Assembly: GCA_017640505.1 (NCBI GenBank)
Contig: JAEPQO010000005.1
Coordinates: 62,001-126,000, forward strand
Source of the DNA: Rhodospirillales bacterium
GTDB lineage: Bacteria > Pseudomonadota > Alphaproteobacteria > Rhodospirillales > Casp-alpha2
Direction of reading: 5' to 3'
DNA: 64,000 nt
This document shows positions 48,574-64,000 of the stretch, piece after piece. Numbering within the stretch: the stretch's first letter is position 1; each line of letters begins with the position of its first letter. The position numbers and the translations under genes were made by a program. Under the pieces are notes generated by a model. It made no database searches, was not told the origin of the DNA, and worked only from the letters and a program-made list of their open reading frames with translations.

Positions 48574-50538
48574 ATGGCCCTGCTGGGAAATATCATCGAC
48601 GAGGATCCCCTCGCCCTCGACGCTGTTCTTGAACCGGAAACGGAAACCGTTTCCGCGCCGGACGGCAGCACGCCACCCGGCACCTCGATTGGTGGCGACG
48701 CCCCTGCGCCGTCCCCGGAACCGGAAACGGACGCGGAAGCGGCAACATTGAGTGGAAGCGGCGACGTTACGGAAACTGCCGCCACCGAGGAGGAAAGCGG
48801 CGCCGAGGGATCCACGACACATTCTCTCTTGGAAGCGTCCCTTGTATCCGACGAAACCGGCGACGCCTCATTCGGTGCGCCGGTATTTTCTGATCCGCTG
48901 GCGACCGATAACGATACGACAGGTACGGATATCACGGACACGGATTCAGATGACGGCGATGACGCGCGCGACGACGAAATCGCGCTGATCGAGCAGCGGC
49001 TCGCCGAAGAATCAGCCACCACGGGTGCCGACGGCGGCGATGTCGCCGACGTATCCGAACCGGCCCCGGACCCCGTCGTCGAAGACCCCGTTGCGCCGAC
49101 CGAGCCTGCCGATGCGGACCTGAACCTGGTCGGCACGTCGGGCGCGGATACGCTGGAAGGCGGCAGCGGCAACGACACCATCGACGGCGGCTTCGGCAAT
49201 GACATTATCCTGGGCGGTGCCGGTGATGATCGCCTGCTGGGCAACACCGGCGACGACCGCATGGAAGGCGGCGACGGCAACGACTATGCCTTCGGCGCCG
49301 CCGGCGCCGACACGATCTACGGCGGTGACGGTAACGACGAACTGCGCGGCGGCTTCCACAATGACTATATCAGCGGCGATGCCGGGGACGATTACCTGAA
49401 CGGCTGGACCGGCAACGACACGCTCGCCGGCGGCGACGGCAACGATACGATGGACGGGGGCGACGATAACGACTTTTACGTCATCGACGGCAGCGCGCCG
49501 GGTGACACCGACATCATCACCGATTCCAGCGGTGACGACGTCTTGCTGTTCGACGGCCTCAACCCTTTTGAATCCGTCAGCTCCGTCGTGCAGAGCGGCA
49601 ACGACCTGATATTCAGCTACACCGGCGGCGGCAGCCTGACGGTCAAGGACTTCTATACCACCGGCGAGATCGAGGTGCTACGCTACGACGGCACGGACTA
49701 CGCCACCAACGCCGACGCATCGACGGCGATTTCGTTCGACGACTTCATCAACGGTACCGACGACCAGATTCTGACCGGTACGTCCGGCGTCGACATCCTG
49801 ACCGGCGGTATCGGCAACGATCAGATTTCAGGACTGGCCGCCAACGATGTGCTGTCGGGCGGAGCCGGCGACGACGAAATCATCGGCGGCGACGGGGTCG
49901 ACACGCTATCCGGCGGCGACGGCAACGATACGCTCTACGGGGCCGGCGGCGGCGCGCTCGACTTCTACAGCGGCGACACGCTCTATGGCGATGCCGGGAT
50001 GGACACGCTCTACGGCGGCGGCGGCAACGACATTCTATACGGTGGCGCCGACGACGACCGCATCCTGGGCGAGTCGGGCGACGACACCGGCTTTGGGGAC
50101 GGCGGCAACGACTACCTGTTCGGCGACCTCGGCAACGACACGCTTTCCGGCGGCGACGGCAACGACGAGGTCCGCGGCGGCTTCAACAACGACGTGCTGT
50201 CCGGTGACGCCGGCGACGACTTCGTTCACGGCTATCACGGCAACGACACGCTCGACGGCGGCACCGGCACCGACCGCATGGAAGGCGGCGACGGCAACGA
50301 CGTCTTCATCATGAAGCGCGGTTACGGCACCGACACCATCAGCGATTTCACCGCGTTCGGCGCAGGGGCGCTCTACGCCGACACCATCGATCTCAGCGAT
50401 TTCGGCATCGCCAGCTTCGACGACCTCGTCATGTCGGAAATCGACGGCAACACCACCATCGACCTCGGCAGCGGCGACAGCCTGACCCTCGAAGGGGTCG
50501 GCACATCGGAACTCGCCGCCGACGACTTCACATTCTGA
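48574..50538 (+). CDS. RTX calcium-binding repeat protein, type I secretion substrate
   Basis: A 654-residue acidic protein without signal peptide. Residues 1-180 are low-complexity and rich in Glu, Asp, Ser and Thr. RTX nonapeptide repeats (GGxGxDxLx) fill about 187-300 and 395-577, with a spacer carrying a SLTVKDFY haemolysin-type calcium-binding segment. The C-terminus, LAADDFTF, resembles a type I secretion signal. The ABC and adaptor genes follow immediately (16 bases). Function on the surface (adhesin, biofilm or S-layer-like) is inferred; no enzymatic domain is seen. Confidence 0.92.
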   Translation: MALLGNIIDEDPLALDAVLEPETETVSAPDGSTPPGTSIGGDAPAPSPEPETDAEAATLSGSGDVTETAATEEESGAEGSTTHSLLEASLVSDETGDASFGAPVFSDPLATDNDTTGTDITDTDSDDGDDARDDEIALIEQRLAEESATTGADGGDVADVSEPAPDPVVEDPVAPTEPADADLNLVGTSGADTLEGGSGNDTIDGGFGNDIILGGAGDDRLLGNTGDDRMEGGDGNDYAFGAAGADTIYGGDGNDELRGGFHNDYISGDAGDDYLNGWTGNDTLAGGDGNDTMDGGDDNDFYVIDGSAPGDTDIITDSSGDDVLLFDGLNPFESVSSVVQSGNDLIFSYTGGGSLTVKDFYTTGEIEVLRYDGTDYATNADASTAISFDDFINGTDDQILTGTSGVDILTGGIGNDQISGLAANDVLSGGAGDDEIIGGDGVDTLSGGDGNDTLYGAGGGALDFYSGDTLYGDAGMDTLYGGGGNDILYGGADDDRILGESGDDTGFGDGGNDYLFGDLGNDTLSGGDGNDEVRGGFNNDVLSGDAGDDFVHGYHGNDTLDGGTGTDRMEGGDGNDVFIMKRGYGTDTISDFTAFGAGALYADTIDLSDFGIASFDDLVMSEIDGNTTIDLGSGDSLTLEGVGTSELAADDFTF

Positions 50539-50554
50539 TCAAGGACCATAGAAA

Positions 50555-52294
50555 ATGAGCACCATCCGAAAGAAGATACGGAAAACGTCCTGGCCCGGCC
50601 TGATCAATGCCCTGAGCGCGACACGCGGCCAGCTGAGCCATCTACTTTGCTTCAGCTTCGCAATCAATCTGCTGGTGCTTTCGGTGCCGGTGTTCATGAT
50701 CCAGGTCTTCGATCGGGTCCTGGCAAGCCACAGCTTCGAAACCCTGACCGCGCTGGCAATCGGTGCCGTTGCCGCGCTGCTGGTGATGTCGGCGCTCGAT
50801 CTCGTGCGCGGCCGCATCCTTGCGCGCGCGGCACTGAAGCTGGAAGACAGCGTCGGCGAGGACCTGCTGACCAAGAACCGCCAGGCGCGGCTCGGCGACG
50901 TCTCGCGTCTTCGGCAGTTCATCGCCGGTCCGGTTATGGTGACATTGCTGGATGCACCGTGGATTCCGGTGTTCCTGTTCGTCGTGTTCCTGCTGCACCC
51001 GATGCTGGGCTGGATCGCCACCGGCGGCGCGGCGATGCTGGGACTGCTGGCGCTGGCCGGTGAACGCTGGATCCGTAGCCTCGTGATCGAAACCCGTGAA
51101 GCCGAGCGCGAGGCGGCGAAGATCGCCGGCACCCTCGCCCACGACGACGGCTCCGCGGCGGTCTTCGGCCTCGACACCCACCTCGGTGCCCGCTGGAAGA
51201 AAGAACAGTCGAAGACGGCACGCCAGCGCCTGCGCCTGGCCGACCGCACGTATACCATCGGCGTGACGGCGCGCTTCATCCGTCTCGCCATGCAGATCAC
51301 CCTAATGGCCGCCGCCGCGGCGCTGGTCATTTCCTCGCAGATCACGCCGGGCGCGATGGTTGCCGCCAGCGTCATCGCGGCGCGCGCCCTCGGCCCGTTC
51401 GAACGTGCGCAGGACGCGTGGCGGACCATCGTCGAAGTGCGCGCCACACTCGCGCGCCTGCTCAAGACCGAGGTCAGCGCGCCGGAGACCGTCAACGGTT
51501 TCCCGCCTGCGGAGGTCCCCAATCTCGACGTCCGGAACGTCACCATGGTCACCGAGGACGCCCGCGAGACGATCTTCTCGAACGTGTCGTTCAAGGCCAA
51601 GGGTGGCGAGATGATCGGAATCACCGGTCCCAGCGGCAGCGGCAAGACGCTGCTGGCGCGGCTGCTTGTCGGCCTCGACACCCCCGTGCACGGCCGCGTC
51701 GACCTGGATCACAACGATATCCGCAACGTCACGCTGGATCGCGCGCGCAACGACATCGCGTATCTGTCGCAGACCCCGGCGCTACTCCCCGGCACCATCG
51801 CCGACAATATCTCGCGGTTTTCCGATCCTGGCGCCCCCGAGATCTACAACGCGGCACGCTTCGTCGGCGCCGAGGAAGCGATCCTGGACCTGCCGTACGG
51901 GTACATGACCGAGGTCGGACCGGGCACGCCGCCGCTGCCGCAGGGTCTCGCACAGAAAATCCTGATGGCGCGGACCATCTTCGCCGACCCGCGCCTGATC
52001 GTGCTCGACGAGCCCTATACCTTCCTCGACAACGCGGGCATTGAACGCCTGATCAGCACGCTCACGCACTACCGCGACAGTGGCTCGATCATCGTCGCCA
52101 TTTCGCAGCGCCCGAGCGTCCTCGCCCAGTGCGACCGCGTCGTCGTGTTCGAGAACAAGACCGCGCGTGTCGTCGACCGTCTGCACAAGCAGCCGCTGCG
52201 CCTGATGGACGGCAAGGAAGAGACGGTAACGACGGCCCGCGCGCCGCGTAAACGCAAGGCCGCCAATAGCGGCGTCACCACTGCTGCGGAGTAA
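50555..52294 (+). CDS. Type I secretion ABC transporter with degenerate signature motif
   Basis: A 579-residue half transporter of the PrtD/LapB-like group, without a C39 peptidase domain. TM helices are in 30-300. Walker A GPSGSGKT is at 358-365, the Q-loop Q406 in LSQTP, and Walker B with D485 and E486 in LIVLDEP. The signature reads LPQGL (461-465) where LSGGQ is expected, and the H-loop histidine is Gln518 (AISQRPS). It should export the upstream RTX protein with the downstream HlyD-type adaptor. Its ATP cycle may be unusual. Confidence 0.9.
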   Translation: MSTIRKKIRKTSWPGLINALSATRGQLSHLLCFSFAINLLVLSVPVFMIQVFDRVLASHSFETLTALAIGAVAALLVMSALDLVRGRILARAALKLEDSVGEDLLTKNRQARLGDVSRLRQFIAGPVMVTLLDAPWIPVFLFVVFLLHPMLGWIATGGAAMLGLLALAGERWIRSLVIETREAEREAAKIAGTLAHDDGSAAVFGLDTHLGARWKKEQSKTARQRLRLADRTYTIGVTARFIRLAMQITLMAAAAALVISSQITPGAMVAASVIAARALGPFERAQDAWRTIVEVRATLARLLKTEVSAPETVNGFPPAEVPNLDVRNVTMVTEDARETIFSNVSFKAKGGEMIGITGPSGSGKTLLARLLVGLDTPVHGRVDLDHNDIRNVTLDRARNDIAYLSQTPALLPGTIADNISRFSDPGAPEIYNAARFVGAEEAILDLPYGYMTEVGPGTPPLPQGLAQKILMARTIFADPRLIVLDEPYTFLDNAGIERLISTLTHYRDSGSIIVAISQRPSVLAQCDRVVVFENKTARVVDRLHKQPLRLMDGKEETVTTARAPRKRKAANSGVTTAAE

Positions 52295-52299
52295 TCGCC

Positions 52300-53760
52300 A
52301 TGATGACACCCGAAGAACTGAAGGCCGCCCTCGAGAAACTTCGCGCCCAGCTTGGCCAGAAGACCACGTGGCGCCAGGAATGCACCAATCGCGACCTCGT
52401 CGCACGCGAGACCGTTGACGAGGATGACGTGGAACCGGAAATCGAGGTGGAAATCGCGGCGGCGGAAACGGCGCAATCGCCCTTCGCGACACGCCGCTGG
52501 CAGTTCGCCGGCTGGGCGATCATCGTCGTCTTCGTGTTCGGCGGCCTCGCCTGGGCGGAACTGACCCGCATCGACGCCGCCGCTGTTGCCGTCGGCACGG
52601 TCGGTGTGGAGAGCAACCGCAAGACGGTCGCGCACCTTGAAGGCGGGATCGTTAAAGCCATTCTGGTCACCGAGGGCGAACGCGTCCGCCAGGGCCAGCC
52701 GCTGGTGCGCATGGACAACACCCGTGCGCGGGCAACGCTGGATCTGCTGCAGGGCCGGATGAACGCGCTCATGGCCAAGAAGGCACGCCTTGATGCCGAG
52801 CGGCGCAATCTGCAGTCGATCGAGTTTCCGCCGCGCCTGCTCGACCTCGCAGTCGACGAGAAGATGATGGATATCATGGACGGCGAAATGCAGGTGCTGG
52901 AAACGCGGCGCCGCAACCTCGACCGCCAGGACAGCATCCTGCGCGAACGGATCGCCAAGCAGCGCGCCGAGATCCGCGGCCTGCAGGCGAAGCGCGATGC
53001 GTCCCGCAAACGATTTGCGATCCTGAAGGACGAACATGAAATGATGAACGGCCTGCTCAAGGATGGGCTGGTCGCCCGGAACCGCGTCCTGTCGGTGGAG
53101 CGCGCCAAGGTCGACGCCGAGGGCGATGTTCATGATCTGACCGCCAAGATCGCCAAGGCGGGCGACGAAATCGCCAAGCTGGAAATGGAACGCGCGCTGA
53201 CGACCGAGCGTCATCAGACCGAGGTCGCCGCCGAGCATCAGGAAACACAGGAACGCATAGCCGAGGTGGAAGAGAAAGTCCGTGCCGCGAAGGATATTCT
53301 GACGCGTACGGACGTCATCGCGCCGGCGGATGGGGTCGTGGTCGCACTGCGCCATCACACGCCGGGCGGTGTCATTCAGGCAGGCGAGCCCGTCCTTGAA
53401 CTGGTGCCGGACGACGACCGCTATGTCATCAACCTGCGCATCGACCCGAACGACATCGACGTCGTCTATCCGGGACAGCAGGCGCGGGTCCGCCTTTCGG
53501 CGTTCAACGCGCGGGCAACGCCGATGCTCGACGGCAAGGTCGTTCAGGTTTCGCCGGACCGCCTCGTCGACCCGGCCACGGGTGCGGGGTACTTCTCCGG
53601 CCGCGTCATCCCGGACGAGGCAGCGTACCACGCCGACCAGCCGATGCTATCACCGGGGATGCAGGCGGAAGTGTTCCTGGTGACGGAACGGCGTTCGGTG
53701 CTCGATTACCTGCTGGACCCGATCGTCCGCGCCGCATCGCGTGCCGGCCGGGAAACGTAA
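52300..53760 (+). CDS. HlyD family type I secretion periplasmic adaptor
   Basis: A 486-residue membrane fusion protein. One N-terminal membrane helix (about 65-85), then RTIAHLEGGIVKAILVTEGERVRQGQ-type lipoyl half-motif (around 108-130), a long coiled coil (about 150-320), and the second lipoyl half APADGVVVALRHHTPGGVIQAGEP followed by a beta-barrel. The start is 6 bases after the ABC gene (a second ATG follows at once). It bridges the ABC exporter to a TolC-type channel, which is not in the window. Confidence 0.93.
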   Translation: MMTPEELKAALEKLRAQLGQKTTWRQECTNRDLVARETVDEDDVEPEIEVEIAAAETAQSPFATRRWQFAGWAIIVVFVFGGLAWAELTRIDAAAVAVGTVGVESNRKTVAHLEGGIVKAILVTEGERVRQGQPLVRMDNTRARATLDLLQGRMNALMAKKARLDAERRNLQSIEFPPRLLDLAVDEKMMDIMDGEMQVLETRRRNLDRQDSILRERIAKQRAEIRGLQAKRDASRKRFAILKDEHEMMNGLLKDGLVARNRVLSVERAKVDAEGDVHDLTAKIAKAGDEIAKLEMERALTTERHQTEVAAEHQETQERIAEVEEKVRAAKDILTRTDVIAPADGVVVALRHHTPGGVIQAGEPVLELVPDDDRYVINLRIDPNDIDVVYPGQQARVRLSAFNARATPMLDGKVVQVSPDRLVDPATGAGYFSGRVIPDEAAYHADQPMLSPGMQAEVFLVTERRSVLDYLLDPIVRAASRAGRET

Positions 53761-54537: not shown

Positions 54538-55092
54538 ATGGCTAAAAAAGTTGCGCCGGTGCCGAAAGGCTATCGCACCGTTACCCCGTCCCTCGTCGTT
54601 CGTGGCGCCGACGCCGCGCTCGGCTTCTATGCAGACGTGTTCGGCGCCGAAGTGCTTTCGCGCACCTACGCCGAAGACGAAGTCACCGTGCTGCACGCGG
54701 AAATGAAGATCGGTAACTCGATCGTCGTCGTTTCCGACGAGCTGCCGGCCTTCGGCATCTGGTCGCCGCTCGCCTATGGCGGGTCCGCCGTTGCCCAGCA
54801 TCTTTATGTCGCCAACGTCGACGAGATCTGGGAACACGCCGTCGACGCCGGCTGCACCGTTCTGGTGCCGCTTGCCGACACGCTGTACGGCGAACGCTTT
54901 GCCAAGGTCGTCGACCCGTTCGGTCACGTCTGGTCGATGTCGAAGCGCATCCCGGCCCCGAAAGCCGAGGACATCAAGGCCAAGACGCAGGCCGAGGGTT
55001 TCTCGATCTACGAGCCGGTCGGCAACCGCGAAGAGCAGCCGTACCCGACCGCCGACGGCACCCAGACCGAGAGTGAAACCGCCGCGGCCTGA
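54538..55092 (+). CDS. VOC family (glyoxalase/bleomycin resistance) protein
   Basis: A 184-residue protein. VPKGYRTVTPSLVVRGADAALGFYADVFGAEVLSR is the first beta-alpha-beta-beta-beta module; DPFGHVWSMSKR with the typical metal Glu/His near the end is the second, as in PhnB-like proteins. ATG 54538 has AGGAG. It ends at a strong terminator, so it is a separate transcription unit from gabT although adjacent. Confidence 0.85.
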   Translation: MAKKVAPVPKGYRTVTPSLVVRGADAALGFYADVFGAEVLSRTYAEDEVTVLHAEMKIGNSIVVVSDELPAFGIWSPLAYGGSAVAQHLYVANVDEIWEHAVDAGCTVLVPLADTLYGERFAKVVDPFGHVWSMSKRIPAPKAEDIKAKTQAEGFSIYEPVGNREEQPYPTADGTQTESETAAA

Positions 55093-55107
55093 CGCTGAGT
55101 TCGGAAG

Positions 55108-55130
55108 GGGCGGCCGATGGCCGCCCTTTT
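55108..55130 (+). terminator. Rho-independent terminator after the VOC gene
   Basis: GGGCGGCC, loop GAT, GGCCGCCC, then TTTT. A textbook hairpin 15 bases after the VOC stop and before gabT, so gabT needs its own promoter in the 40-base gap or tolerates read-through. Confidence 0.8.
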
Positions 55131-55170
55131 CATCTCCATCGTTGATGAATTCATACAGGGACTAACGGAA

Positions 55171-56475
55171 ATGACTGATAATAAATCGCTCAATGAACGC
55201 CGCCTTGCCGCCACGCCCCGGGGCGTCGGTGTTGCCACCGGCATTTACGCGGACCGCGCCGAAAACGCGGAACTGTGGGACGTCGAAGGCAACCGCTACG
55301 TTGACTTCGCGGGCGGGATCGCCGTGCTCAACACCGGTCACCGCAACCCGACCGTAATGGCCGCCGTGCAACAGCAGCTCGAGCGTTTCACCCACACCGC
55401 CTATCAGGTCGTGCCGTACGAGCCCTATGTCGAGCTTGCGGAAAAGCTGAACGAACTTGCGCCCGGCGATACGCCGAAGAAGACGCTGTTCGTTACCACC
55501 GGCGCCGAAGCCGTCGAAAACGCCATTAAGATCGCACGTGCGCACACTGGCCGTCCGGGCGTGATCGCATTCGCCGGCGGCTTCCACGGCCGCACCATGA
55601 TGACCATGGGTCTGACCGGCAAGGTCGATCCTTACAAGCGTGGTTTCGGTCCGATGCCGGCCGGCATCCATCACCTGCCGTTCCCGATGCCGATGCACGG
55701 CGTCTCGGTCCAGGACTCGATCAATGCCCTGCACCGTCTGTTCAAGGCCGATCTCGAGCCGGAACAGGTCGCAGCCATCATCATCGAGCCGGTCCAGGGC
55801 GAAGGCGGCTTCTACATTGCGCCGGTCGAACTGATCGCCGAACTGCGCCGCGTCTGCGACCAGTACGGCATCTGCCTGATCGCCGATGAAGTGCAGACCG
55901 GCTTTGCCCGCACGGGCCGTCTCTTTGCCTCCGAGCACTGGGGTATCGAGCCGGACATGATTACCACCGCCAAGTCGCTCGCGGGCGGTTTCCCGCTGGC
56001 CGGCGTTGTCGGCAAGGCCGAGATCATGGACGCTCCCCTGCCGGGCGGTCTCGGCGGCACCTACGGCGGCAGCCCGATCGGCTGCGCCGCCGCGCTGGGT
56101 GTACTGAAGGTAATCGAGGAAGAACAGCTTCTGGGCCGCGCCAACATCATCGGCCAGCGCATCCTTGAGCGCGTCGAGCGCATCAAGGCACGCACCGACG
56201 TTCACCCGATCGGTAACGTCCGCGGGCTCGGCGCCATGGTCGCCTTCGAACTGGTGACGGAACACGGCGGCAACACGCCGGACGCCGACGCCACCAAGGC
56301 CCTTTGTGCCAAGGCGCTTGAAAACGGCCTGATCCTGCTGTCGTGCGGCGTTTACGCCAACACGGTCCGGATCCTGGTACCGTTGACGGCAACCGACGCC
56401 ATCATCGACGAGGGTCTCGATATCATCGAGCGCTCCCTCGCCGAAATCGGCGCCACCGCGGTCGCGGCGGAATAA
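55171..56475 (+). CDS. gabT: 4-aminobutyrate aminotransferase-like class III transaminase
   Basis: A 434-residue PLP enzyme. D239 (LIADEVQTG) and the PLP lysine K268 (TTAKSLAGGFPLAG) fall at the same numbers as in E. coli GabT. FVTTGAEAVENAIKIARAHTGR and FHGRTMM are also conserved. It moves the amino group of 4-aminobutyrate or another omega-amine to 2-oxoglutarate. The ATG 55171 has GGGA upstream; a start at 55117 would precede the terminator hairpin region. It fits a route that takes diamines to succinate semialdehyde. Confidence 0.88.
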   Translation: MTDNKSLNERRLAATPRGVGVATGIYADRAENAELWDVEGNRYVDFAGGIAVLNTGHRNPTVMAAVQQQLERFTHTAYQVVPYEPYVELAEKLNELAPGDTPKKTLFVTTGAEAVENAIKIARAHTGRPGVIAFAGGFHGRTMMTMGLTGKVDPYKRGFGPMPAGIHHLPFPMPMHGVSVQDSINALHRLFKADLEPEQVAAIIIEPVQGEGGFYIAPVELIAELRRVCDQYGICLIADEVQTGFARTGRLFASEHWGIEPDMITTAKSLAGGFPLAGVVGKAEIMDAPLPGGLGGTYGGSPIGCAAALGVLKVIEEEQLLGRANIIGQRILERVERIKARTDVHPIGNVRGLGAMVAFELVTEHGGNTPDADATKALCAKALENGLILLSCGVYANTVRILVPLTATDAIIDEGLDIIERSLAEIGATAVAAE

Positions 56476-56481
56476 GGCTTC

Positions 56482-56511
56482 GCCCGGGAATGCCACCGTG
56501 TGTTCCCGGGC
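56482..56511 (+). terminator. Hairpin after gabT, no T-tract
   Basis: GCCCGGGAA and TTCCCGGGC pair perfectly around a 12-base loop. Without a following T run it is more likely an mRNA-stabilising or processing element than a full stop. Confidence 0.5.
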
Positions 56512-56586
56512 AGACCTTGACCAGAAACCGCTAGCGCGCCACGATTGATATTCATTCGCGATACGAACAAAGAGGTTGATACTTAG

Positions 56587-57543
56587 ATGACCCCCTTCGC
56601 GATTGCCGGTGTGCAGATGCACGTATCGGCCAGCCATGAAAACGTGACCGCGATGTCACATCGCATCGATCACGTCATGGCACGCTTTCCCTGGGTTCAG
56701 ATGATCGTGTTCAGCGAGCTGGCACCGTACGGCCCGCTGACAGGCAATCATCCCGAAAGCATCGAAGGGGCGCTCGACGTGTTCCGCGAAGCCGCCATCC
56801 GTCACAATGTCTGGCTGCTGCCGGGCTCCATGTTCGAACGTACGGAAGTGGGCCTGCACAACGCGGCTTACGTCATCAATCCGCAGGGCGAGACCGTCGC
56901 CCGCTATGCCAAGATGTTTCCGTTCCAGCCCTACGAGGCAGGCGTCGAGGGCGGCACCGAGTTCTGCGTGTTCGACGTGCCGGACGTGGGCCGCTTCGGG
57001 GTTTCGATCTGCTACGATATCTGGTTCCCGGAAACGACCCGCACGCTGGTGTCGATGGGCGCCGAGGTCCTGCTGCACCCGGTACTGACCGGCACCATCG
57101 ACCGCGACATCGAACTTTCCATCGCGCGTTCGACCGCGGCGATGTTCCAGACCTATGTGTTCGACATCAATGGCCTCGGCCCGGGCGGCACCGGCCGTTC
57201 GTGCGTCGTCGACCCGTCGGGCACCATCATCTATCAGGCCGCCGGCCAGGAAGAAGTGATCCCCGTCGAGGTCGATTTCGACATGGTGCGCCGCCAGCGC
57301 GCCGTGGGCCTCAGGGGTCTCGGTCAGACATTGAAGAGTTTCCGTGACCGCAACGTCTATTTCGGCGTTTACGACCCGATGAGCGCGGACACGTCCTATC
57401 TATACAGTCTCGGTAACCTGGAAATGCCGCATCAAGGTTCCGCCGAAGGCCTGAACGCCCCCCGCCCGGCCGACATCACCGGCCATCGGGGACACAGCAA
57501 TATTACGGTGCTCGACACCCATAAAAGCGTGAAAGACGCATAA
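56587..57543 (+). CDS. Nitrilase superfamily amidohydrolase (carbon-nitrogen hydrolase)
   Basis: A 318-residue enzyme of the nitrilase fold. The triad is visible: E44 in FSELAPYGP, K109 in YAKMFPFQPYE and C142 in VSICYDIWFPE. The spacing fits the family, which includes aliphatic amidases, N-carbamoylputrescine amidase and formamidase. The ribosome-binding site is AGAGG, 10 bases upstream. It is 29 bases before the decarboxylase gene, so it probably hydrolyses an amide or ureido form of that pathway. Confidence 0.88.
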   Translation: MTPFAIAGVQMHVSASHENVTAMSHRIDHVMARFPWVQMIVFSELAPYGPLTGNHPESIEGALDVFREAAIRHNVWLLPGSMFERTEVGLHNAAYVINPQGETVARYAKMFPFQPYEAGVEGGTEFCVFDVPDVGRFGVSICYDIWFPETTRTLVSMGAEVLLHPVLTGTIDRDIELSIARSTAAMFQTYVFDINGLGPGGTGRSCVVDPSGTIIYQAAGQEEVIPVEVDFDMVRRQRAVGLRGLGQTLKSFRDRNVYFGVYDPMSADTSYLYSLGNLEMPHQGSAEGLNAPRPADITGHRGHSNITVLDTHKSVKDA

Positions 57544-57544
57544 A

Positions 57545-57598
57545 ATGACTAAGTACAGGGAGCTTAAACACTATGCCGGACGAGGGAGCGAAGACTAA
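57545..57598 (+). CDS. Possible 17-residue leader peptide overlapping the decarboxylase start
   Basis: The frame begins ATG ACT AAG, 1 base after the amidohydrolase stop, and reads MTKYRELKHYAGRGSED. It overlaps the decarboxylase start (57573) in another frame. It is rich in Lys, Arg and Tyr. Its own ribosome-binding site is weak, so it may be chance. Confidence 0.2.
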   Translation: MTKYRELKHYAGRGSED

Positions 57599-60314
57599 GG
57601 GCGTATCTTTAGGTCGCTACTACAACGCAACTCAGTTACGCGTCGATACCTGGAACAAGCTGAAAAACATCGTCCTTCGCCTGGCCGAGGGACGAGAGCG
57701 TCCCGACGACTATGCACAGGCGCGCGCGCTGCTGGATGAACTGGCACCGTTCGAGACCTACTGGGCGTTCCCCGGACATCACGACTTCAGGCAGCTCTAT
57801 CACCTTCTGGATAACCGTGACGCACGCACGCTGAGCCGCGCCGTGTCGCGCATCGTCGGCGCATTGATGAGCAGCAGTTATCGCCGCAAACACGTAAACC
57901 TCGGCCTGCATGGCGAAGAGGACTACATTGACGACGAGGACGTCGAGACGCCCGAGGAACGCGTCCGCCGCCGCCCCTACTTCGAGGTGCTTTTCGTCGA
58001 CGACCTGTCGCACGTGCAACAGAACCAGCAGGAAGAAGGCCTGCACGCGATGCGGCGCGAGGAAGATCCGTTCACCTACGAGCCGGTCTTCGTGCCGAGC
58101 TTCGAGGACGCGATCATCGCCGCGCTTTTCAATCACAACATTCAGGCCGTGGTCATCCGCTTCGGTTTTCAGTTCAAGTCGCACAACGACCTGCCGGTGC
58201 TGTCGCGCTACCTGAAGATGGCGCATATCGACAATTCGGACGAACTTGAGCCGCAGGACTACGGCATCGTGCTGGCCGACGTCATCGCCCGCATTCGCCC
58301 CGAACTCGACCTCTATCTGGTCACCGACCAGAGCGTCGAGGACGTCGCCGGCCGTGTCGGCGATGCCTGCCGCCGCATATTTTACAATCAGGAAGACTTC
58401 CTGGAACTGCACATGAACATCCTGCGCGGCGTCGACAGCCGTTACAATGCACCGTTCTTCACCGCGCTCAGAAACTACGCCAAGCAGCCGACCGGCGTGT
58501 TCCATGCCCTGCCCATCTCGCGCGGCAAATCGATCTCCAAGTCCAACTGGATCCGCGACATGGGCGAGTTCTATGGCATGAACATCTTTCTCGCCGAAAC
58601 ATCCGCTACATCCGGCGGGCTGGACTCGTTGCTGGAACCGCACGGCCCAATCAAGAAAGCGCACGAACTTGCGTCACGCGCGTTTGGCTCGCGCAAGACG
58701 TTCTTTGCGACCAACGGCACGTCGACCTGCAACAAGATCGTCGTGCAGGCCATCGTCCGGCCCGGCGACATCGTGCTGGTCGACCGTGACTGCCACAAGT
58801 CGCACCATTACGGCATGGTGCTGGGCGGCGCGCACGTGGTGTATCTCGACAGCTATCCGCTCAGCGAATACTCGATGTACGGCGCCGTGCCGCTGCGCGA
58901 GATCAAGAAGGAACTGCTGGAACTGAAGGCGGCGGGCAAACTCGACAAGGTCCGCATGCTTCTGCTGACCAACTGTACCTTCGACGGTCTCGTCTACAAC
59001 GTCGAGCGTGTCATGGAGGAATGCCTCGCGATCAAGCCGGACCTCGTGTTCCTCTGGGACGAGGCCTGGTTCGGCTTCGCCCGGTTCGGCCCGACGTACC
59101 GTCAGCGCACCGGCATGTACCAGGCCGGGAACCTGCGCGAAAAGTTCAAGGATCCGGACTACCGCGAAGAATACGAAGCCCACAAGGCCGAACGCGAAGC
59201 CGCCGGCGACGATATCGAGAAGCTGCTCGACATGCGCCTGCTGCCGGACCCGGACGTGGCGCGCGTCCGAGTCTATTCCACGCAGTCGACGCACAAGACC
59301 CTGACCGCGCTGCGTCAGGGCTCGATGATCCACGTGCACGACCAGGATTTCTCGTCGAAGGTCGAAGAACCCTTCCACGAAGCGTTCATGACGCACACCT
59401 CGACCTCGCCCAACTACCAGATACTGGCGTCGCTCGACGTCGGCCGGCGCCAGGTTGAGCTGGAAGGCTTCGAGATGGTGCAGAAACAGGTCGAGATGGC
59501 CATGGTGTTGCGCCAGAAGGTCCGCACACACCCGCTGCTGTCGAAGTACTTCAAGGTGCTGACCGTCGGCGACATGATCCCGCCCGAATACCGCCAGTCG
59601 GGGATCGAAAGCTATTACGATCCCGACAAGGGCTGGAACGACATCTGGGAAGCATGGGCCGGCGACGAGTTCTCGCTCGACGCGACGCGCATCACACTTC
59701 TGGTCGGCGGCACCGGCATGGACGGCGACACGTTCAAGAACGCCGAGCTGATGGACAAGTACGGCATCCAGATCAACAAGACGTCGCGCAACACGGTCCT
59801 GTTCATGACCAACATCGGCACGACGCGGAGTTCGATCGCGTACCTGATCGAAGTCCTGGTCAAAATCGCCAACGACATGGACGAAAAGCTGGAGGACATG
59901 AACGCGCCGGAACGCAAGGCACACGAGAAGAAGGTCGACGCGCTGCTGAACGAGCTGCCGCCGCTGCCCGATTTCTCGCGATTCCACGACGCCTTTCGCC
60001 CTGACCCGAAGGGTCACACCCGCGAAGGCGTCATGCGCGATGCGTACTTCCTTTCCTACGACGAGGACTCCTGCGAGTACCTGACGCTCGAAGGCGGGAT
60101 CGAGGAAGCGATGAATGCCGGGCGCGAGGTCGTGTCCGCGACGTTCATCATCCCCTACCCGCCCGGCTTCCCGATCCTGGTGCCGGGACAGGTGGTCTCG
60201 AAGGAGATCATCGGTTTCTTCAAGGCCCTCGACGTGAAGGAAATCCACGGCTACCGCCCGGATCTGGGCCTACGCGTATTCACGGAGGACGCGCTTAAGG
60301 CGCGCCTCAAGTAA
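57573..60314 (+). CDS. Orn/Lys/Arg-type PLP decarboxylase, oversized
   Basis: A 913-residue fold-I decarboxylase. Residues 1-330 hold a long N-terminal region that includes a wing-like domain; the catalytic core shows FFATNGTSTCNKIVVQAIVRPGDIVLVDRDCHKS (377-409), D496 in LWDEAWFGFARFGP, and the PLP lysine K575 in STQSTHKTLTALRQGSM. The C-terminal domain includes IPYPPGFPILVPGQ. Typical members are about 710-760 residues; the extra length is in the N-terminal part and a charged insert at about 520-555. It should release a diamine such as putrescine, cadaverine or agmatine. CAGGGAG lies 10 bases before the ATG. Confidence 0.9.
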   Translation: MPDEGAKTKGVSLGRYYNATQLRVDTWNKLKNIVLRLAEGRERPDDYAQARALLDELAPFETYWAFPGHHDFRQLYHLLDNRDARTLSRAVSRIVGALMSSSYRRKHVNLGLHGEEDYIDDEDVETPEERVRRRPYFEVLFVDDLSHVQQNQQEEGLHAMRREEDPFTYEPVFVPSFEDAIIAALFNHNIQAVVIRFGFQFKSHNDLPVLSRYLKMAHIDNSDELEPQDYGIVLADVIARIRPELDLYLVTDQSVEDVAGRVGDACRRIFYNQEDFLELHMNILRGVDSRYNAPFFTALRNYAKQPTGVFHALPISRGKSISKSNWIRDMGEFYGMNIFLAETSATSGGLDSLLEPHGPIKKAHELASRAFGSRKTFFATNGTSTCNKIVVQAIVRPGDIVLVDRDCHKSHHYGMVLGGAHVVYLDSYPLSEYSMYGAVPLREIKKELLELKAAGKLDKVRMLLLTNCTFDGLVYNVERVMEECLAIKPDLVFLWDEAWFGFARFGPTYRQRTGMYQAGNLREKFKDPDYREEYEAHKAEREAAGDDIEKLLDMRLLPDPDVARVRVYSTQSTHKTLTALRQGSMIHVHDQDFSSKVEEPFHEAFMTHTSTSPNYQILASLDVGRRQVELEGFEMVQKQVEMAMVLRQKVRTHPLLSKYFKVLTVGDMIPPEYRQSGIESYYDPDKGWNDIWEAWAGDEFSLDATRITLLVGGTGMDGDTFKNAELMDKYGIQINKTSRNTVLFMTNIGTTRSSIAYLIEVLVKIANDMDEKLEDMNAPERKAHEKKVDALLNELPPLPDFSRFHDAFRPDPKGHTREGVMRDAYFLSYDEDSCEYLTLEGGIEEAMNAGREVVSATFIIPYPPGFPILVPGQVVSKEIIGFFKALDVKEIHGYRPDLGLRVFTEDALKARLK

Positions 60315-60373
60315 AACCATCGGCGGCGGCAACGACCGGCGCCTGAAGACTGCAAACAGGGAGACTGAGAACC

Positions 60374-61942
60374 ATGGCAAGAGCCACCACGAAGAAAGCC
60401 GCGCCGAAAAAGAAAGCCGCCAAGAAGGCTGCGCCCAAGAAAAAGGCCGTCGCGAAGAAAACCGCCGCCAAGAAACCGGCCGCGCGCAAACCGCGCCAGA
60501 AGAAGCTGAAAAACATTTCCGAGATCCGGCGCTACTTCCACCGCAATGAAGACCCGATCTTCTTCATCAGCGCGACCAATTTCAACCTGCTCGGCATCGA
60601 CGAGTGGTGCCGCAACTTCAAATACATCTGCTATATCGACTGCTACGACGGCCGCCATCCGAACGTGTTTGTGCCGTCGGAAGCACCACATCCCGAGTTC
60701 GAAAGCATCGAGGACATCAATGCCTACCTTCTCGAACACAAGGAAGTCATCGATTACGTGAAGTCCAAAGGCGGCAAGCCCAAGGCGGTGTTCCTGATGT
60801 TCGACGAACGCGTCGAGAAGGTCTGCAAGGAACTGGGTCTCGAGGTCTGGTTCCCGAAGGCGGCACTGCGCGAGAAGATCGATCACAAGATCGAAACCGT
60901 GCGCATCGGCAACAAGGCCGGCGTCCCCAGCGTGCCGAATACGCTCGGCGTCATTGACAGCTGGGAAGACCTGCAGAAGCTGGCCAAGCCGCTCGGCAAG
61001 GATCTTGTGCTGCAGTCCGCCTTTGGCGACAGCGGTCACACCACGTTCTTCATCAAGAACGAAAAGGATTTCCGCCGTTACGAACATGACATCGTCGGCC
61101 AGGGCGAAATCAAGGTCATGAAGCGGATCAATTGCCGTGGCTCGGCGATCGAGGCCTGCGCCACATCCAAGGGCACCATCGTCGGTCCGCTGATGACGGA
61201 ACTTGTCGGCTTCAATGAACTGACGCCCTATCGCGGCGGCTGGTGCGGCAACGAAATCTTCCCCGAAGCGTTCGATCCGAAGATCCGCAAGAAGGCCCGC
61301 GAGTACACCTTCCAGTTCGGCAATCAGCTGGTCAAGGAAGGCTACCGCGGCTACTTCGAGCTCGACTTCCTGATCGACCAGAACGACGGCAATATCTATC
61401 TGGGCGAGTGCAATCCGCGCGTCACGGGCGCCAGCTCGATGACCAACCACGCGGCCTTCGCACACGCCGATGCGCCGTTGTTCCTGTTCCACCTGCTCGA
61501 ATTCTCGGGCGTCCCGTTCGATATCGACGTCAACGAGCTGAACAACCGCTGGGCCGATGCCGACAACATCGACAGCTGGTGTCAGATGGTCATCAAGCAC
61601 ACCGAGGATAACGTCGACATCATCACGGAAGCCCCGGAATCGGGTATCTGGAGCCTGCACAAGGACGGCAGCGTCAGCTATAACCGCTTCGACTATCACC
61701 GCCGCGCGGTGGAAAGCGAGGCCGAGGCGTTCTTCCTGCGCATTTCCGACAAGGGCGATTACCGTTACGAGGGCGCCGATCTCGGCATTCTCATCACGCG
61801 CGGCCGCGCCATGGACAGCAAGTTCCGGCTCACCAAGCGTGCCAAGCAGTGGATCGAGGGCATCAAGTCGCAATACAAGGCGAAGCCGCTGCCCAAGGCA
61901 CAACCCGTGGAAATGGCCGATCCGGCGTTCAAGATTCTTTGA
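60374..61942 (+). CDS. ATP-grasp ligase with histone H1-like N-terminal tail
   Basis: A 522-residue protein. Residues 1-47 are a Lys/Ala/Pro-rich tail (repeated AAPKKKA, KKPAARK) like a histone H1 terminal domain. The body (about 48-500) is an ATP-grasp enzyme: GVPSVPNTLG, LVLQSAFGDSGHTT as the ATP-loop, and Mg ligands E329 and E345 with N347 in GYFELDFLIDQNDGNIYLGECNPRVTG. Such enzymes join a carboxylate to an amine or thiol with ATP. It is 59 bases after the decarboxylase gene, so the acceptor may be the diamine. Often labelled biotin carboxylase, but no biotin domains are here. Confidence 0.85.
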   Translation: MARATTKKAAPKKKAAKKAAPKKKAVAKKTAAKKPAARKPRQKKLKNISEIRRYFHRNEDPIFFISATNFNLLGIDEWCRNFKYICYIDCYDGRHPNVFVPSEAPHPEFESIEDINAYLLEHKEVIDYVKSKGGKPKAVFLMFDERVEKVCKELGLEVWFPKAALREKIDHKIETVRIGNKAGVPSVPNTLGVIDSWEDLQKLAKPLGKDLVLQSAFGDSGHTTFFIKNEKDFRRYEHDIVGQGEIKVMKRINCRGSAIEACATSKGTIVGPLMTELVGFNELTPYRGGWCGNEIFPEAFDPKIRKKAREYTFQFGNQLVKEGYRGYFELDFLIDQNDGNIYLGECNPRVTGASSMTNHAAFAHADAPLFLFHLLEFSGVPFDIDVNELNNRWADADNIDSWCQMVIKHTEDNVDIITEAPESGIWSLHKDGSVSYNRFDYHRRAVESEAEAFFLRISDKGDYRYEGADLGILITRGRAMDSKFRLTKRAKQWIEGIKSQYKAKPLPKAQPVEMADPAFKIL

Positions 61943-61973
61943 CGCTAGACCGGTTTAAGCGTAACCAGAGCGC

Positions 61974-62963
61974 ATGGATCTTGTATTCGAAGCGGTAAGC
62001 GAAAAGACACCGGGCCCGAGGTGGCAGTCCCTGTTCGAGACCCTCTGGCCCGCTTACCAGCGCTGGTTTCTTTCCGACGGCATCGAGGCCCGCCAGACCT
62101 ATCTGGCGGGCTACCGGGCCTTCAAGCAGCACATGCCGGAAATGCTGCCGACGTACGAAAAGCTTTGCGAGCGCGCGGGCGGCGACGACCTGTCGGCCCG
62201 ATTCCTGAGCTTTTACTGCCCGCCCGCCTACCTTTCCGGCTGTTCGCAGGCGGTCTGGCCCGGCCATGAGCCGATGCTGGTCCGCAACTACGATTACGCC
62301 CCCGCGCTCTGCGACGGGCTGATCCTGCATTCCCGCTGGCACGACCGCTGGGTGATGGGCATGTCGGACGGCCTGTTCGGCCTCGTCGACGGTCTCAACG
62401 ACCGGGGCCTGGCGGTGTCGCTCACGTTTGGCGGGCGCACCGTCGTCGGCGACGGCTTCGGCGTGCCTATCATCCTCCGTTACATCATGGAGTTCTGCGA
62501 CACCGTGCAGGACGCCGTCGAGGCGTTGACGTCGATCCCGTGCCACATGACCTACAACGTCACCGTGGTCGACAAGCGGGGCAAGCACGCGACGGTCTAT
62601 CTGGCGCCGGACCGCGAAGCCATCGTCACCGACCAGCGTGTCGCCACCAACCACCAGGAACGTGTCGAATGGCACCGGCACGCCCGCGCCACCGCGACGG
62701 TGGAACGCGAACGCTTCCTGCTGCAACGCCTGACGTTGCACGACGAACCGGCCGACCGTTTCATCGGCGCGTTCCAGAAGCCGCCGCTCTATTCGACGGC
62801 GTTCGGGCGCGGCTTCGGCACGGTCTACACCGCCATCTACTGGCCCAGGAAAGGCCTCGCCGAATACCGCTGGCCCGGGGTGCACTGGACGCAGCGCCTG
62901 AAGTCGCCGGTCGAAGGACAGCGCCATATCCGCTTCCCGATGTCGGACGAAGTTCTCGCCTGA
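61974..62963 (+). CDS. C45 family Ntn autoproteolytic acyltransferase/hydrolase
   Basis: A 329-residue protein of the isopenicillin-N acyltransferase-like Ntn group. The likely nucleophile C90 follows Gly in AYLSGCSQAVW; LVRNYDYAP, GLNDRGLAVSLTFGG and NVTVVDKRGKHATVYLAPDR are family segments, as is ATNHQE. Self-cleavage between G89 and C90 would create the active enzyme. It forms or breaks amide bonds by acyl transfer. It is 31 bases after the ATP-grasp gene, so it may act on its product. Confidence 0.85.
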   Translation: MDLVFEAVSEKTPGPRWQSLFETLWPAYQRWFLSDGIEARQTYLAGYRAFKQHMPEMLPTYEKLCERAGGDDLSARFLSFYCPPAYLSGCSQAVWPGHEPMLVRNYDYAPALCDGLILHSRWHDRWVMGMSDGLFGLVDGLNDRGLAVSLTFGGRTVVGDGFGVPIILRYIMEFCDTVQDAVEALTSIPCHMTYNVTVVDKRGKHATVYLAPDREAIVTDQRVATNHQERVEWHRHARATATVERERFLLQRLTLHDEPADRFIGAFQKPPLYSTAFGRGFGTVYTAIYWPRKGLAEYRWPGVHWTQRLKSPVEGQRHIRFPMSDEVLA

Positions 62964-63043
62964 TTTCAAAAAAGTTTAATGATTTTCACGGCCTCGCATG
63001 TTGGTATGAGTGACACGACCCGATTGCCGAAACAGGGACGCCC

Positions 63044-63697
63044 GTGAAAAAAGTTTACAGACGCATCTTCAATGGATTTAGCGCACCGGTCGTACCGCTC
63101 GACTGCGGCGAAAAATGCCGCCATCTGAACGACGGCGTTCCCGTCTGCTGCGATATCGGCCACGCCGTGCCTATCATGGACAAGTCGGAATACAAGCTGC
63201 TGCGTTCCCGCTCGGATCTCTGGAGCAAGTACAAGCCGGAGGATGACCACGGTGAAGAGCTGGTGAATTCCCTGCACGACGACTGCGTCGCGTGCGAATG
63301 CAAGGGCGCCAAGTTCTGCGAACGGGACAACCGCTCGCTCAGCTGCCGCGCGTTTCCGTTCTTTCCCTACATCGATAAGTCGGGCGAGATGCTCGGTCTC
63401 GCGACCTACTGGACGTTCGAGGACCGCTGCTGGGTGATCAGCAACATGAGAAAGGTCACGCGCGAATTCATCGAAGAGTTCTTCGACAGCTACGAGCACC
63501 TGTTCAAGAAGAAACCCGACGAGTTCGACGTCTTCAAGGATTACTCGGCAACCATGCGGCGCGTGTTTTCACGCAAGAAACGCGCGATCTACATCATCGA
63601 CCGTGACAAGAAATTCCACGCCATCCTGCCGAAGGGCGCCGGCATGCACCGCGTCAAGAAACGCGAGTTGCCGGCGTTCGAACCCTTCGCGGATTAA
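63044..63697 (+). CDS. YkgJ-like cysteine cluster protein
   Basis: A 217-residue protein with nine cysteines in its first 101 residues: C21, C25, C35, C36, C81, C84, C86, C92 and C101, with CEREN-like CERDNRSLSCRAFPF. The pattern suggests a Zn or Fe-S site as in YkgJ/UPF0153 proteins. The C-terminus is basic and has no cysteine. GTG start with AGGGA upstream. It overlaps the convergent aminotransferase end by 4 bases. Function unknown; it may be a maturation or redox partner for the cluster. Confidence 0.8.
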   Translation: MKKVYRRIFNGFSAPVVPLDCGEKCRHLNDGVPVCCDIGHAVPIMDKSEYKLLRSRSDLWSKYKPEDDHGEELVNSLHDDCVACECKGAKFCERDNRSLSCRAFPFFPYIDKSGEMLGLATYWTFEDRCWVISNMRKVTREFIEEFFDSYEHLFKKKPDEFDVFKDYSATMRRVFSRKKRAIYIIDRDKKFHAILPKGAGMHRVKKRELPAFEPFAD

Positions 63698-64000
63698 GCC
63701 TTCACCTCAGCATAGACACTGTCGAGCGCCTTCTTGACCGCGGCGACGATCTCGTCGACCTCGCCTTCGGTGATGCAGAACGGCGGTGCGAAACCGAGGA
63801 TGTCGCCGTGCGGCATGGCGCGCGCGATAACGCCGTTTTCCAGCGCTGCCGCAGACATCTTGGCGCCGACCTTGAGGCCCGGATCGAAGAACGTCTTCGT
63901 TGCCTTGTCCTGCACGAACTCGACGGCGGCCAAAAGCCCCTCGCCCCGCACTTCGCCGACCATCGGATGATCGGCAAACGCATCGCGCAGGCTTTTCTGG
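63694..64000 (-). CDS. Class III aminotransferase, C-terminal part (cut by window end)
   Basis: Only the last 101 or so codons are in the window; the frame runs off at 64000 as SLRDAFADHPMVGEVRGEGLLAAVEFV. The end AMPHGDILGFAPPFCITEGEVDEIVAAVKKALDSV is typical of omega-amino acid:pyruvate/polyamine transaminases. The PLP lysine lies outside. It would use an omega-amine and complements the decarboxylase cluster on the other strand. Confidence 0.85.
   Translation of the reverse strand, partial: QKSLRDAFADHPMVGEVRGEGLLAAVEFVQDKATKTFFDPGLKVGAKMSAAALENGVIARAMPHGDILGFAPPFCITEGEVDEIVAAVKKALDSVYAEVKA

What the first reader, a model, noticed from the sequence alone, without database searches (positions are those of the whole stretch)
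54538..64000. Uncharacterised diamine/amide cluster: decarboxylase, ATP-grasp ligase, Ntn acyltransferase, amidase and transaminases
Seen: on one strand, a GabT-like transaminase, a nitrilase-fold amidase (E44-K109-C142), an oversized Orn/Lys/Arg decarboxylase (K575), an ATP-grasp enzyme, a C45 Ntn protein (C90) and a 9-cysteine protein; a second class III transaminase is convergent. Known: each family acts on amines or amides. Inference: the set may make a diamine, ligate it to a carboxylate, transacylate or hydrolyse the amide and oxidise the amine. This combination matches no named pathway I know, such as Puu, AguB or spermidine routes.
Basis: partly seen in the sequence, partly recalled or inferred. 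Interest (0 to 1): 0.75.

Follow-up and report, generated by a model that had tools for sequence, protein, structure and literature searches.

The report
Conserved four-enzyme amide operon feeding GABA
Four enzyme genes that keep close company in many marine bacteria appear to build and cut an amide around the amino acids glutamate and GABA, and the decarboxylase among them, whose family is named for lysine, ornithine and arginine, lacks the residue thought to hold those substrates, so it probably works on something else.

Summary
The main guess, one functional unit, holds beyond close relatives: nitrilase-fold amidase (CNH), OKR-fold decarboxylase (DC), ATP-grasp ligase and C45 Ntn protein lie on one strand within about 9 kb in 58 of 59 related loci with full flanks. 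They also occur together in beta- and gammaproteobacteria. GabT is near in 25 of 59 and a TAXI-TRAP transporter in 29 of 59; each 0 of 20 in control stretches. The 'diamine' part is not favoured, though not excluded: the residue aligned with LdcI Glu526 is Asn in 97 of 97 DC homologs and in the solved orphan Rv2531c, and a sister DC clade is paired with aspartate-alanine antiporters. With a GABA transaminase over its cut-off this points to glutamate or a gamma-glutamyl amide giving GABA or a GABA amide. The ATP-grasp enzyme would make, and the C45 and nitrilase enzymes cut, an amide whose partner I could not identify. Shown: anatomy, conservation, catalytic residues, predicted folds of two members. 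Inferred: every substrate. Agmatinase-type genes beside some copies are evidence the other way. My ten paper searches found no description of the set.

The parts
54538..55092 (+). glyoxalase-fold protein (184 aa); loosely associated
   Evidence: Pfam PF00903; relatives at 35% or more in 6 of 80 related loci
55117..56475 (+). GabT, 4-aminobutyrate:2-oxoglutarate transaminase (an internal Met at 55171 is a possible start)
   Evidence: TIGR00700 591 bits over cut-off 506.65; a 50% or closer relative in 25 of 59 full-flank loci, 0 of 20 controls
56587..57543 (+). CNH, nitrilase-fold amidase, E44-K109-E117-C142
   Evidence: Pfam PF00795; the four residues invariant in 91 of 91 homologs; in 58 of 59 loci
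57573..60314 (+). DC, OKR-fold PLP decarboxylase of the Rv2531c type, Lys575; Asn735 where LdcI has Glu526, Arg581, Gln873
   Evidence: PF01276; 875 bits to PDB 9n0n/9n0o; residues in 97, 97 and 96 of 97 homologs
60374..61942 (+). ATP-grasp ligase (PRK06524 family, called biotin carboxylase in records); residues 1-43 a Lys/Ala/Pro tail
   Evidence: NF005096 767 bits over cut-off 684; model pLDDT 82.6; biotin carboxylase/PurK/PylC fold
61974..62963 (+). C45 Ntn autoproteolytic acyltransferase/hydrolase, nucleophile Cys90
63044..63697 (+). Cys-rich protein (10 Cys), probably not part of the conserved system
   Evidence: no family match; relative in 1 of 80 loci
63694..64000 (-). class III aminotransferase (PRK07482 family), cut by the window end, complete in L003:15694-17085
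   Evidence: NF005684 808 bits over cut-off 687; 60% relative in the same operon as the module in L138 and 59% in L139

Best explanation
CNH, DC, ATP-grasp and C45 form one small pathway that makes and breaks an amide and delivers GABA to GabT. Most likely steps, all substrates inferred: DC removes the alpha-carboxylate of glutamate, or of glutamate tied through its gamma-carboxyl in an amide, giving GABA or a GABA amide. The ATP-grasp enzyme spends ATP to join the glutamate or GABA carboxylate to an amine X. The C45 enzyme, after cutting itself to expose Cys90, and the nitrilase-fold enzyme hydrolyse the amide, releasing X and GABA. GabT then turns GABA into succinate semialdehyde, which an SSADH oxidises. 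This works like the ligate-process-hydrolyse logic of the E. coli Puu pathway, but with non-homologous enzymes at the ligase and hydrolase steps. Shown: gene order and its conservation, invariant catalytic residues, predicted folds of the ligase and the C45 protein, curated-family status of GabT. Inferred: the substrates, the identity of X, the order of the steps.
For: Four genes together in 58 of 59 full-flank loci, order CNH-DC-ATP-grasp-C45 in 56. Catalytic residues: CNH 91 of 91, C45 Cys90 99 of 99, ATP-grasp D331/E345/N347/R349 102 of 102, DC Lys575 97 of 97. DC: Asn735 where the three canonical enzymes shown have Glu, Arg581 where they have Ser, Gln873 where they have Glu, kept in 97, 97 and 96 of 97 homologs; Glu526 is a postulated substrate-binding residue of lysine decarboxylase (PMC5607190, passages). 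Four of four fetched loci of the sister DC clade have an annotated aspartate-alanine antiporter directly downstream, one of them scanned and over its equivalog cut-off. GABA hub: TIGR00700 over cut-off in the window and in four of four other GabTs scanned; SSADH over cut-off in three of three scanned, two of them (L100, L111) beside GabT. Shinella-type clusters have no DC in the stretch but carry genes annotated for arginine breakdown (AruI-type 737 bits against 500), a route that by established knowledge ends in GABA. C45 fold closest to isopenicillin N acyltransferase, which removes a delta-aminoadipyl group, one carbon longer than gamma-glutamyl (recalled).
Against: No substrate was tested. 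The antiporter clade is separated from the module clade by a long branch (1.53 changes per column), so its substrate need not be shared. GabT is near in only 25 of 59 loci. Ureohydrolases over the agmatinase equivalog cut-off (212 and 194 bits against 174.3) lie near the module in L036 and L145, and the XRE-cupin regulator resembles PuuR though below its cut-off (136 against 211); both favour agmatine or putrescine. Absence of canonical glutamate decarboxylase from the genome says little, as only 1 of 96 class genomes has it over cut-off. Making and hydrolysing an amide in one operon is futile unless X or an intermediate step gives it a purpose that I cannot name.
Confidence: 0.4

Rival explanations
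1. One reading: DC makes a diamine or agmatine from Orn, Lys or Arg; the ATP-grasp enzyme gamma-glutamylates it; a transaminase and an aldehyde dehydrogenase oxidise the free end; C45 removes glutamate; GabT takes the GABA.
For: PF01276 membership; XRE-cupin regulator with PuuR as its best NCBIfam hit in L035, relatives in 19 of 59 loci; agmatinase-family genes near the module in L036, L145 and L146; DC, aldehyde dehydrogenase and class III transaminase in a row in L138 and L139.
Against: Glu to Asn at the position aligned with LdcI Glu526 in 97 of 97 homologs, with two further changes from acidic or neutral to neutral or basic; antiporter pairing of the sister clade; no oxidase or dehydrogenase in the four-gene core; the transaminase passes 50% in 1 of 80 loci.
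Confidence: 0.2
2. Aspartate to beta-alanine: DC is an aspartate 1-decarboxylase; the ATP-grasp enzyme makes a beta-alanyl amide (as carnosine synthase does) and C45 cleaves it (as the insect enzyme Tan does).
For: The antiporter family is named for aspartate, and aspartate 4-decarboxylase is annotated in L157 and L160; the module or its sister DC lies in or beside ectoine breakdown genes, whose product is aspartate, in L138, L139 and L159. Carnosine synthase and Tan are recalled.
Against: GabT is over a GABA-specific cut-off and SSADH is found with it; in L157 and L160 aspartate already has its own decarboxylase; the OKR pocket normally takes longer side chains (recalled).
Confidence: 0.12
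3. Neutral-side-chain amino acid: DC decarboxylates citrulline to N-carbamoylputrescine, or glutamine to 4-aminobutanamide, and the adjacent nitrilase-fold enzyme hydrolyses the product.
For: Best NCBIfam match of CNH is N-carbamoylputrescine amidase; CNH lies directly before DC in 56 of 59 loci; Asn735 could bind an amide or ureido group (inference).
Against: That match is only 67 bits against a cut-off of 410; it gives no role to the ATP-grasp/C45 pair; the antiporter pairing suits an acidic substrate better.
Confidence: 0.13
4. The module serves a step of arginine or ectoine breakdown and the GabT link is incidental.
For: Arginine-type clusters in L036, L122 and L123; the complete module inside doeA-doeB-Lrp ... 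aldehyde dehydrogenase-aminotransferase in L138 and L139.
Against: doeA and doeB relatives appear in 0 of 80 genome-contig loci and the AruI type in 0 of 80; ectoine context found only in two related gammaproteobacteria.
Confidence: 0.1

Closest known systems
Rv2531c-type OKR-fold decarboxylase (PDB 9n0n, 9n0o, 9n0p)
   Same: full-length relative of DC, 875 bits over residues 14-909, with the same Asn, Arg and Gln replacements
   Different: activity unknown in print (PMC12910592, passage); I did not look at its genome neighbourhood
E. coli Puu pathway (gamma-glutamyl-putrescine route)
   Same: logic of ATP-driven ligation, processing, amide hydrolysis and GABA transaminase; PuuR-like regulator near some copies
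   Different: ligase is ATP-grasp, not of the glutamine synthetase type, and hydrolase is C45, not PuuD type (Puu details recalled); no diamine oxidase in the core
Butirosin BtrJ/BtrK side-chain logic (recalled)
   Same: ATP-grasp ligation of the glutamate gamma-carboxyl followed by PLP decarboxylation to a GABA amide
   Different: no carrier protein found in the module; different PLP family; catabolic rather than antibiotic setting
Isopenicillin N acyltransferase (2x1c) for the C45 member
   Different: 13% identity; substrate unknown
Decarboxylase/antiporter acid-resistance pairs (GadB/GadC type)
   Same: the sister DC clade is followed by an AspT antiporter in four of four fetched loci, with an HdeA/HdeB chaperone gene in one
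   Different: OKR-fold enzyme and AspT-family antiporter; this clade lacks the ATP-grasp/C45 partners in the stretches fetched

Membership tests
Orn/Lys/Arg decarboxylase (substrate class) | PF01276 domain and PLP lysine | tested here: met
   255 bits over cut-off 27; Lys575 in 97 of 97 homologs
Orn/Lys/Arg decarboxylase (substrate class) | acidic residue at the LdcI Glu526 position for the distal amine | tested here: not met
   Asn735, Asn in 97 of 97 homologs; Glu in the three canonical enzymes aligned. The residue's role is postulated (PMC5607190)
Orn/Lys/Arg decarboxylase (substrate class) | activity on Orn, Lys or Arg | not testable with these tools
   needs an enzyme assay
4-aminobutyrate:2-oxoglutarate transaminase (GabT) | TIGR00700 equivalog cut-off | tested here: met
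   591.3 against 506.65
PRK06524 'biotin carboxylase' family | NF005096 cut-off | tested here: met
   767 against 684
biotin-dependent carboxylase (as a function) | biotin carboxyl carrier and carboxyltransferase partners | tested here: inconclusive
   none recognised among the conserved neighbours tallied; no search of the whole genome for partners was made
C45 autoproteolytic acyltransferase/hydrolase | NF040521 cut-off and invariant nucleophile Cys | tested here: met
   172 against 85; Cys90 in 99 of 99
N-carbamoylputrescine amidase (AguB) | TIGR03381 cut-off | tested here: not met
   67.3 against 410.25
Puu pathway | PuuR regulator, NF007408 cut-off | tested here: not met
   135.6 against 211 for the L035 regulator; no such gene in the window stretch
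Puu pathway | gamma-glutamyl-putrescine as intermediate | not testable with these tools
   needs metabolite or enzyme assay
canonical glutamate decarboxylase | PF00282 / TIGR01788 | tested here: not met
   DC matches neither model within the limits used, and the genome has no PF00282 match
Ectoine breakdown (doe/eut) | DoeA and DoeB with the module | tested here: not met
   met in L138 and L139 only; 0 of 80 related loci at 40%; the window genome has a DoeA-like gene on another contig below cut-off, 491 against 613

The most novel reading that the evidence does not exclude
A GABA-forming route in ordinary metabolism in which glutamate is first tied through its gamma-carboxyl to a carrier amine by an ATP-grasp ligase, decarboxylated while tied by an OKR-fold enzyme that has switched from basic to gamma-glutamyl substrates, and freed as GABA by a C45 or nitrilase-fold amidase. 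In some clover, alfalfa and pea-type symbionts the same decarboxylase-ligase-C45 genes have moved beside nitrogen-fixation genes and, in 3 of 10 loci scanned, under a NifA/sigma-54-type promoter, so that the tied GABA compound would be made in nodules.
Probability: 0.15. Interest if true: 0.85.

Novelty: new variant of a known kind. Interest (0 to 1): 0.6.

Why it matters
The module is spread through marine Rhodobacterales and other proteobacteria, so it would be a common but undescribed step in the turnover of glutamate, GABA or a related amide. It also gives a structurally solved orphan enzyme family (Rv2531c type) its first specific substrate hypotheses, and it warns that the automatic labels 'Orn/Lys/Arg decarboxylase' and 'biotin carboxylase' are probably wrong about function here. 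The rhizobial copies beside nif and fix genes make a nodule role testable.

Tried and rejected
Canonical glutamate decarboxylase missing and replaced by DC: 0 of 20 genomes holding the ATP-grasp gene have TIGR01788 over cut-off, but only 1 of 96 class genomes has it, so the test says nothing.

Ectoine breakdown as the general role: striking in L138 and L139 but absent from the other loci.

NifA/sigma-54 control as a general rhizobial feature: a UAS plus -24/-12 pair upstream of DC in L037, L038 and L039 (chance 0 to 0.003 per kilobase in shuffles), none in L040, L161, L190, L191, L192, L193 and L194. In L192, L193 and L194 a pair faces the divergent glutamate-type dehydrogenase instead; in L191 a pair lies at the like place with no such gene annotated. 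L190 lies next to nifHD and the scan found no pair even for nifH, so it misses real sites. Six comparison loci (L035, L036, L123, L157, L160, L161) gave none.

Fold of the ATP-grasp model: biotin carboxylases, PurK and PylC are tied within about one Z unit, so the fold does not choose between carboxylation and amide ligation. Sequence profile hits are led by pyruvate and biotin carboxylases (best 2e-7).

Literature: ten searches gave no paper on the gene set. PMC12910592 and PMC5607190 were seen as passages only; all other papers as search listings. The cryo-EM paper on Rv2531c is not held and was not read.
Full report
1. Observation. They stand 24-111 bases apart, which fits one transcript. 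Curated models name GabT (TIGR00700, 591 bits against 506.65), the ATP-grasp protein (NF005096/PRK06524, 767 against 684) and the C45 protein (NF040521, 172 against 85); CN_hydrolase and OKR_DC_1 are clear Pfam matches. The Cys-rich protein has 10 cysteines and no family match. The convergent transaminase is complete beyond the window end and belongs to the PRK07482 subfamily, 808 bits against 687.

2. Conservation. They are mostly Rhodobacterales, with Kordiimonas, Oceanibacterium, Minwuia, Hyphomicrobiales MAGs and some records named as gammaproteobacteria. 59 of the 80 have full flanks. In 58 of these 59, CNH, DC, ATP-grasp and C45 are on one strand with midpoints within 9 kb, in that order in 56; the exception, L099, lacks CNH. 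GabT (50% or more) is present in 25 of 59, TAXI and TRAP proteins in 29 of 59 each, a universal stress protein in 21, an XRE-cupin regulator in 19, an FMN glutamate-synthase-like protein in 11. All were 0 of 20 in arbitrary 20-kb stretches of four of the genomes; these controls are not matched to the 59 genomes, and the 80 loci were chosen for closeness to the query. Further off, the four genes are together in Cupriavidus oxalaticus (L121) and in genomes of other classes in the phylum sample, some in another order (L138, L139, L140, L141); L142 has three of them without CNH. The family is not universal: 8 of 385 class genomes over the NF005096 cut-off, 11 of 398 phylum genomes at E 1e-40 or better. 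The Cys-rich protein and the convergent transaminase pass my thresholds in 1 of 80 loci each.

4. The decarboxylase is the key. It is a full-length relative of Rv2531c (PDB 9n0n/9n0o, 875 bits). PMC12910592 (passages) calls Rv2531c a probable decarboxylase distantly similar to arginine decarboxylases and says that the cryo-EM study did not clarify its activity. In the alignments to an arginine decarboxylase and two lysine decarboxylases (6q6i, 6y3x, 5fkz), the Glu of their V-E-K motif, which counts to Glu526 in 5fkz, is Asn735 here; Ser six residues after the PLP lysine is Arg581; the Glu of P-G-E is Gln873. Over 97 homologs these are 97, 97 and 96 of 97, and Rv2531c has the same three. PMC5607190 (passages) reports Glu526 as a postulated substrate-binding residue of lysine decarboxylase. 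I infer that the distal group of the natural substrate is not a free amine or guanidinium.

5. The sister clade. Plasmid records hold about 50%-identical DCs without the ATP-grasp partner in the stretch. In four of four loci fetched from that clade (L157-L160) an annotated aspartate-alanine antiporter follows DC; the one scanned is over the TIGR03802 cut-off (562 against 547). Two of the loci also carry an aspartate 4-decarboxylase and one an HdeA/HdeB chaperone gene. This looks like a decarboxylase/antiporter acid-resistance pair with an acidic substrate. The clade is well supported but on a long stem (1.53), so carrying its substrate over to the module is an inference.

6. GABA as hub. GabT is over a GABA-specific equivalog cut-off in the window and in four of four other loci scanned; SSADH is over cut-off in three of three scanned, directly beside GabT in L100 and L111. 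The window genome has an SSADH over cut-off on another contig and no PF00282 decarboxylase. Clusters of the Shinella type (L036, L122, L123) have CNH, ATP-grasp and C45 but no DC in the stretch; they carry genes annotated as 5-guanidino-2-oxopentanoate decarboxylase, agmatinase-family hydrolase, aldehyde dehydrogenase, D-amino acid dehydrogenase and racemase, by established knowledge a route from arginine toward GABA. Roseateles XES5 carries a DC elsewhere on the same plasmid.

7. Evidence the other way. The ureohydrolases in L036 and L145 pass the agmatinase equivalog cut-off (212 and 194 against 174.3), and the XRE-cupin regulator's best NCBIfam match is PuuR, below cut-off. In L138 and L139 the module sits between doeA-doeB-Lrp and an aldehyde dehydrogenase plus class III transaminase, which suggests ectoine, 2,4-diaminobutyrate or aspartate. 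The amine partner of the amide is unknown, and a dipeptide-type ABC importer beside the module in Roseobacter ponti, Cupriavidus necator and several rhizobia only hints that the amide is peptide-like.

8. Rhizobial copies. DC, ATP-grasp and C45 genes lie on rhizobial plasmids near nif or fix genes in L037, L038 and L190. Some copies are broken or partial: in L037 C45 is cut short near insertion sequences. A NifA-type UAS and a sigma-54-type promoter at fitting spacing stand upstream of DC in 3 of 10 loci scanned; the pair in L037 is identical to one before a tlpA-like, fixABCX and nifA gene run.

9. Verdict. A real, conserved, undescribed four-enzyme module built from known families. My best reading is amide make-and-break around glutamate and GABA (0.40); the diamine reading stays possible (0.20). 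What would settle it is one enzyme assay on DC and one on the ATP-grasp protein.

Noticed in passing
window 60374-60502: The ATP-grasp protein starts with a 43-residue Lys/Ala/Pro tail like that of histone H1 (model pLDDT about 30-40); similar basic tails stand before the domain in L041, L145 and L146.
   Followed up: partly
window 48574-53760: Upstream on the same strand lie a protein with glycine/aspartate-rich RTX-like repeats, an ABC exporter-like protein and a membrane-fusion-like protein, which looks like a type I secretion set (read from the translations).
   Followed up: no
L157, L158, L159, L160: OKR-fold decarboxylase followed by an aspartate-alanine antiporter, with an HdeA/HdeB gene in L160: a possible acid-resistance pair of a new composition.
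   Followed up: partly
L037, L038, L039 upstream of the decarboxylase: NifA UAS plus sigma-54-type promoter pairs; absent from seven other rhizobial loci scanned.
   Followed up: partly
L038:13496-14644: A second, N-terminally shortened ATP-grasp-like gene (45% identical to the window's) directly after the first one.
   Followed up: no
L074: The record is titled Oceanobacillus (a Gram-positive genus) but its module is 73% identical in the ATP-grasp protein to the alphaproteobacterial one; probably a mislabelled or mixed assembly.
   Followed up: no
L138 5133-18861: The whole module lies inside an ectoine breakdown cluster (doeA and doeB over their cut-offs) in two related gammaproteobacteria.
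   Followed up: partly
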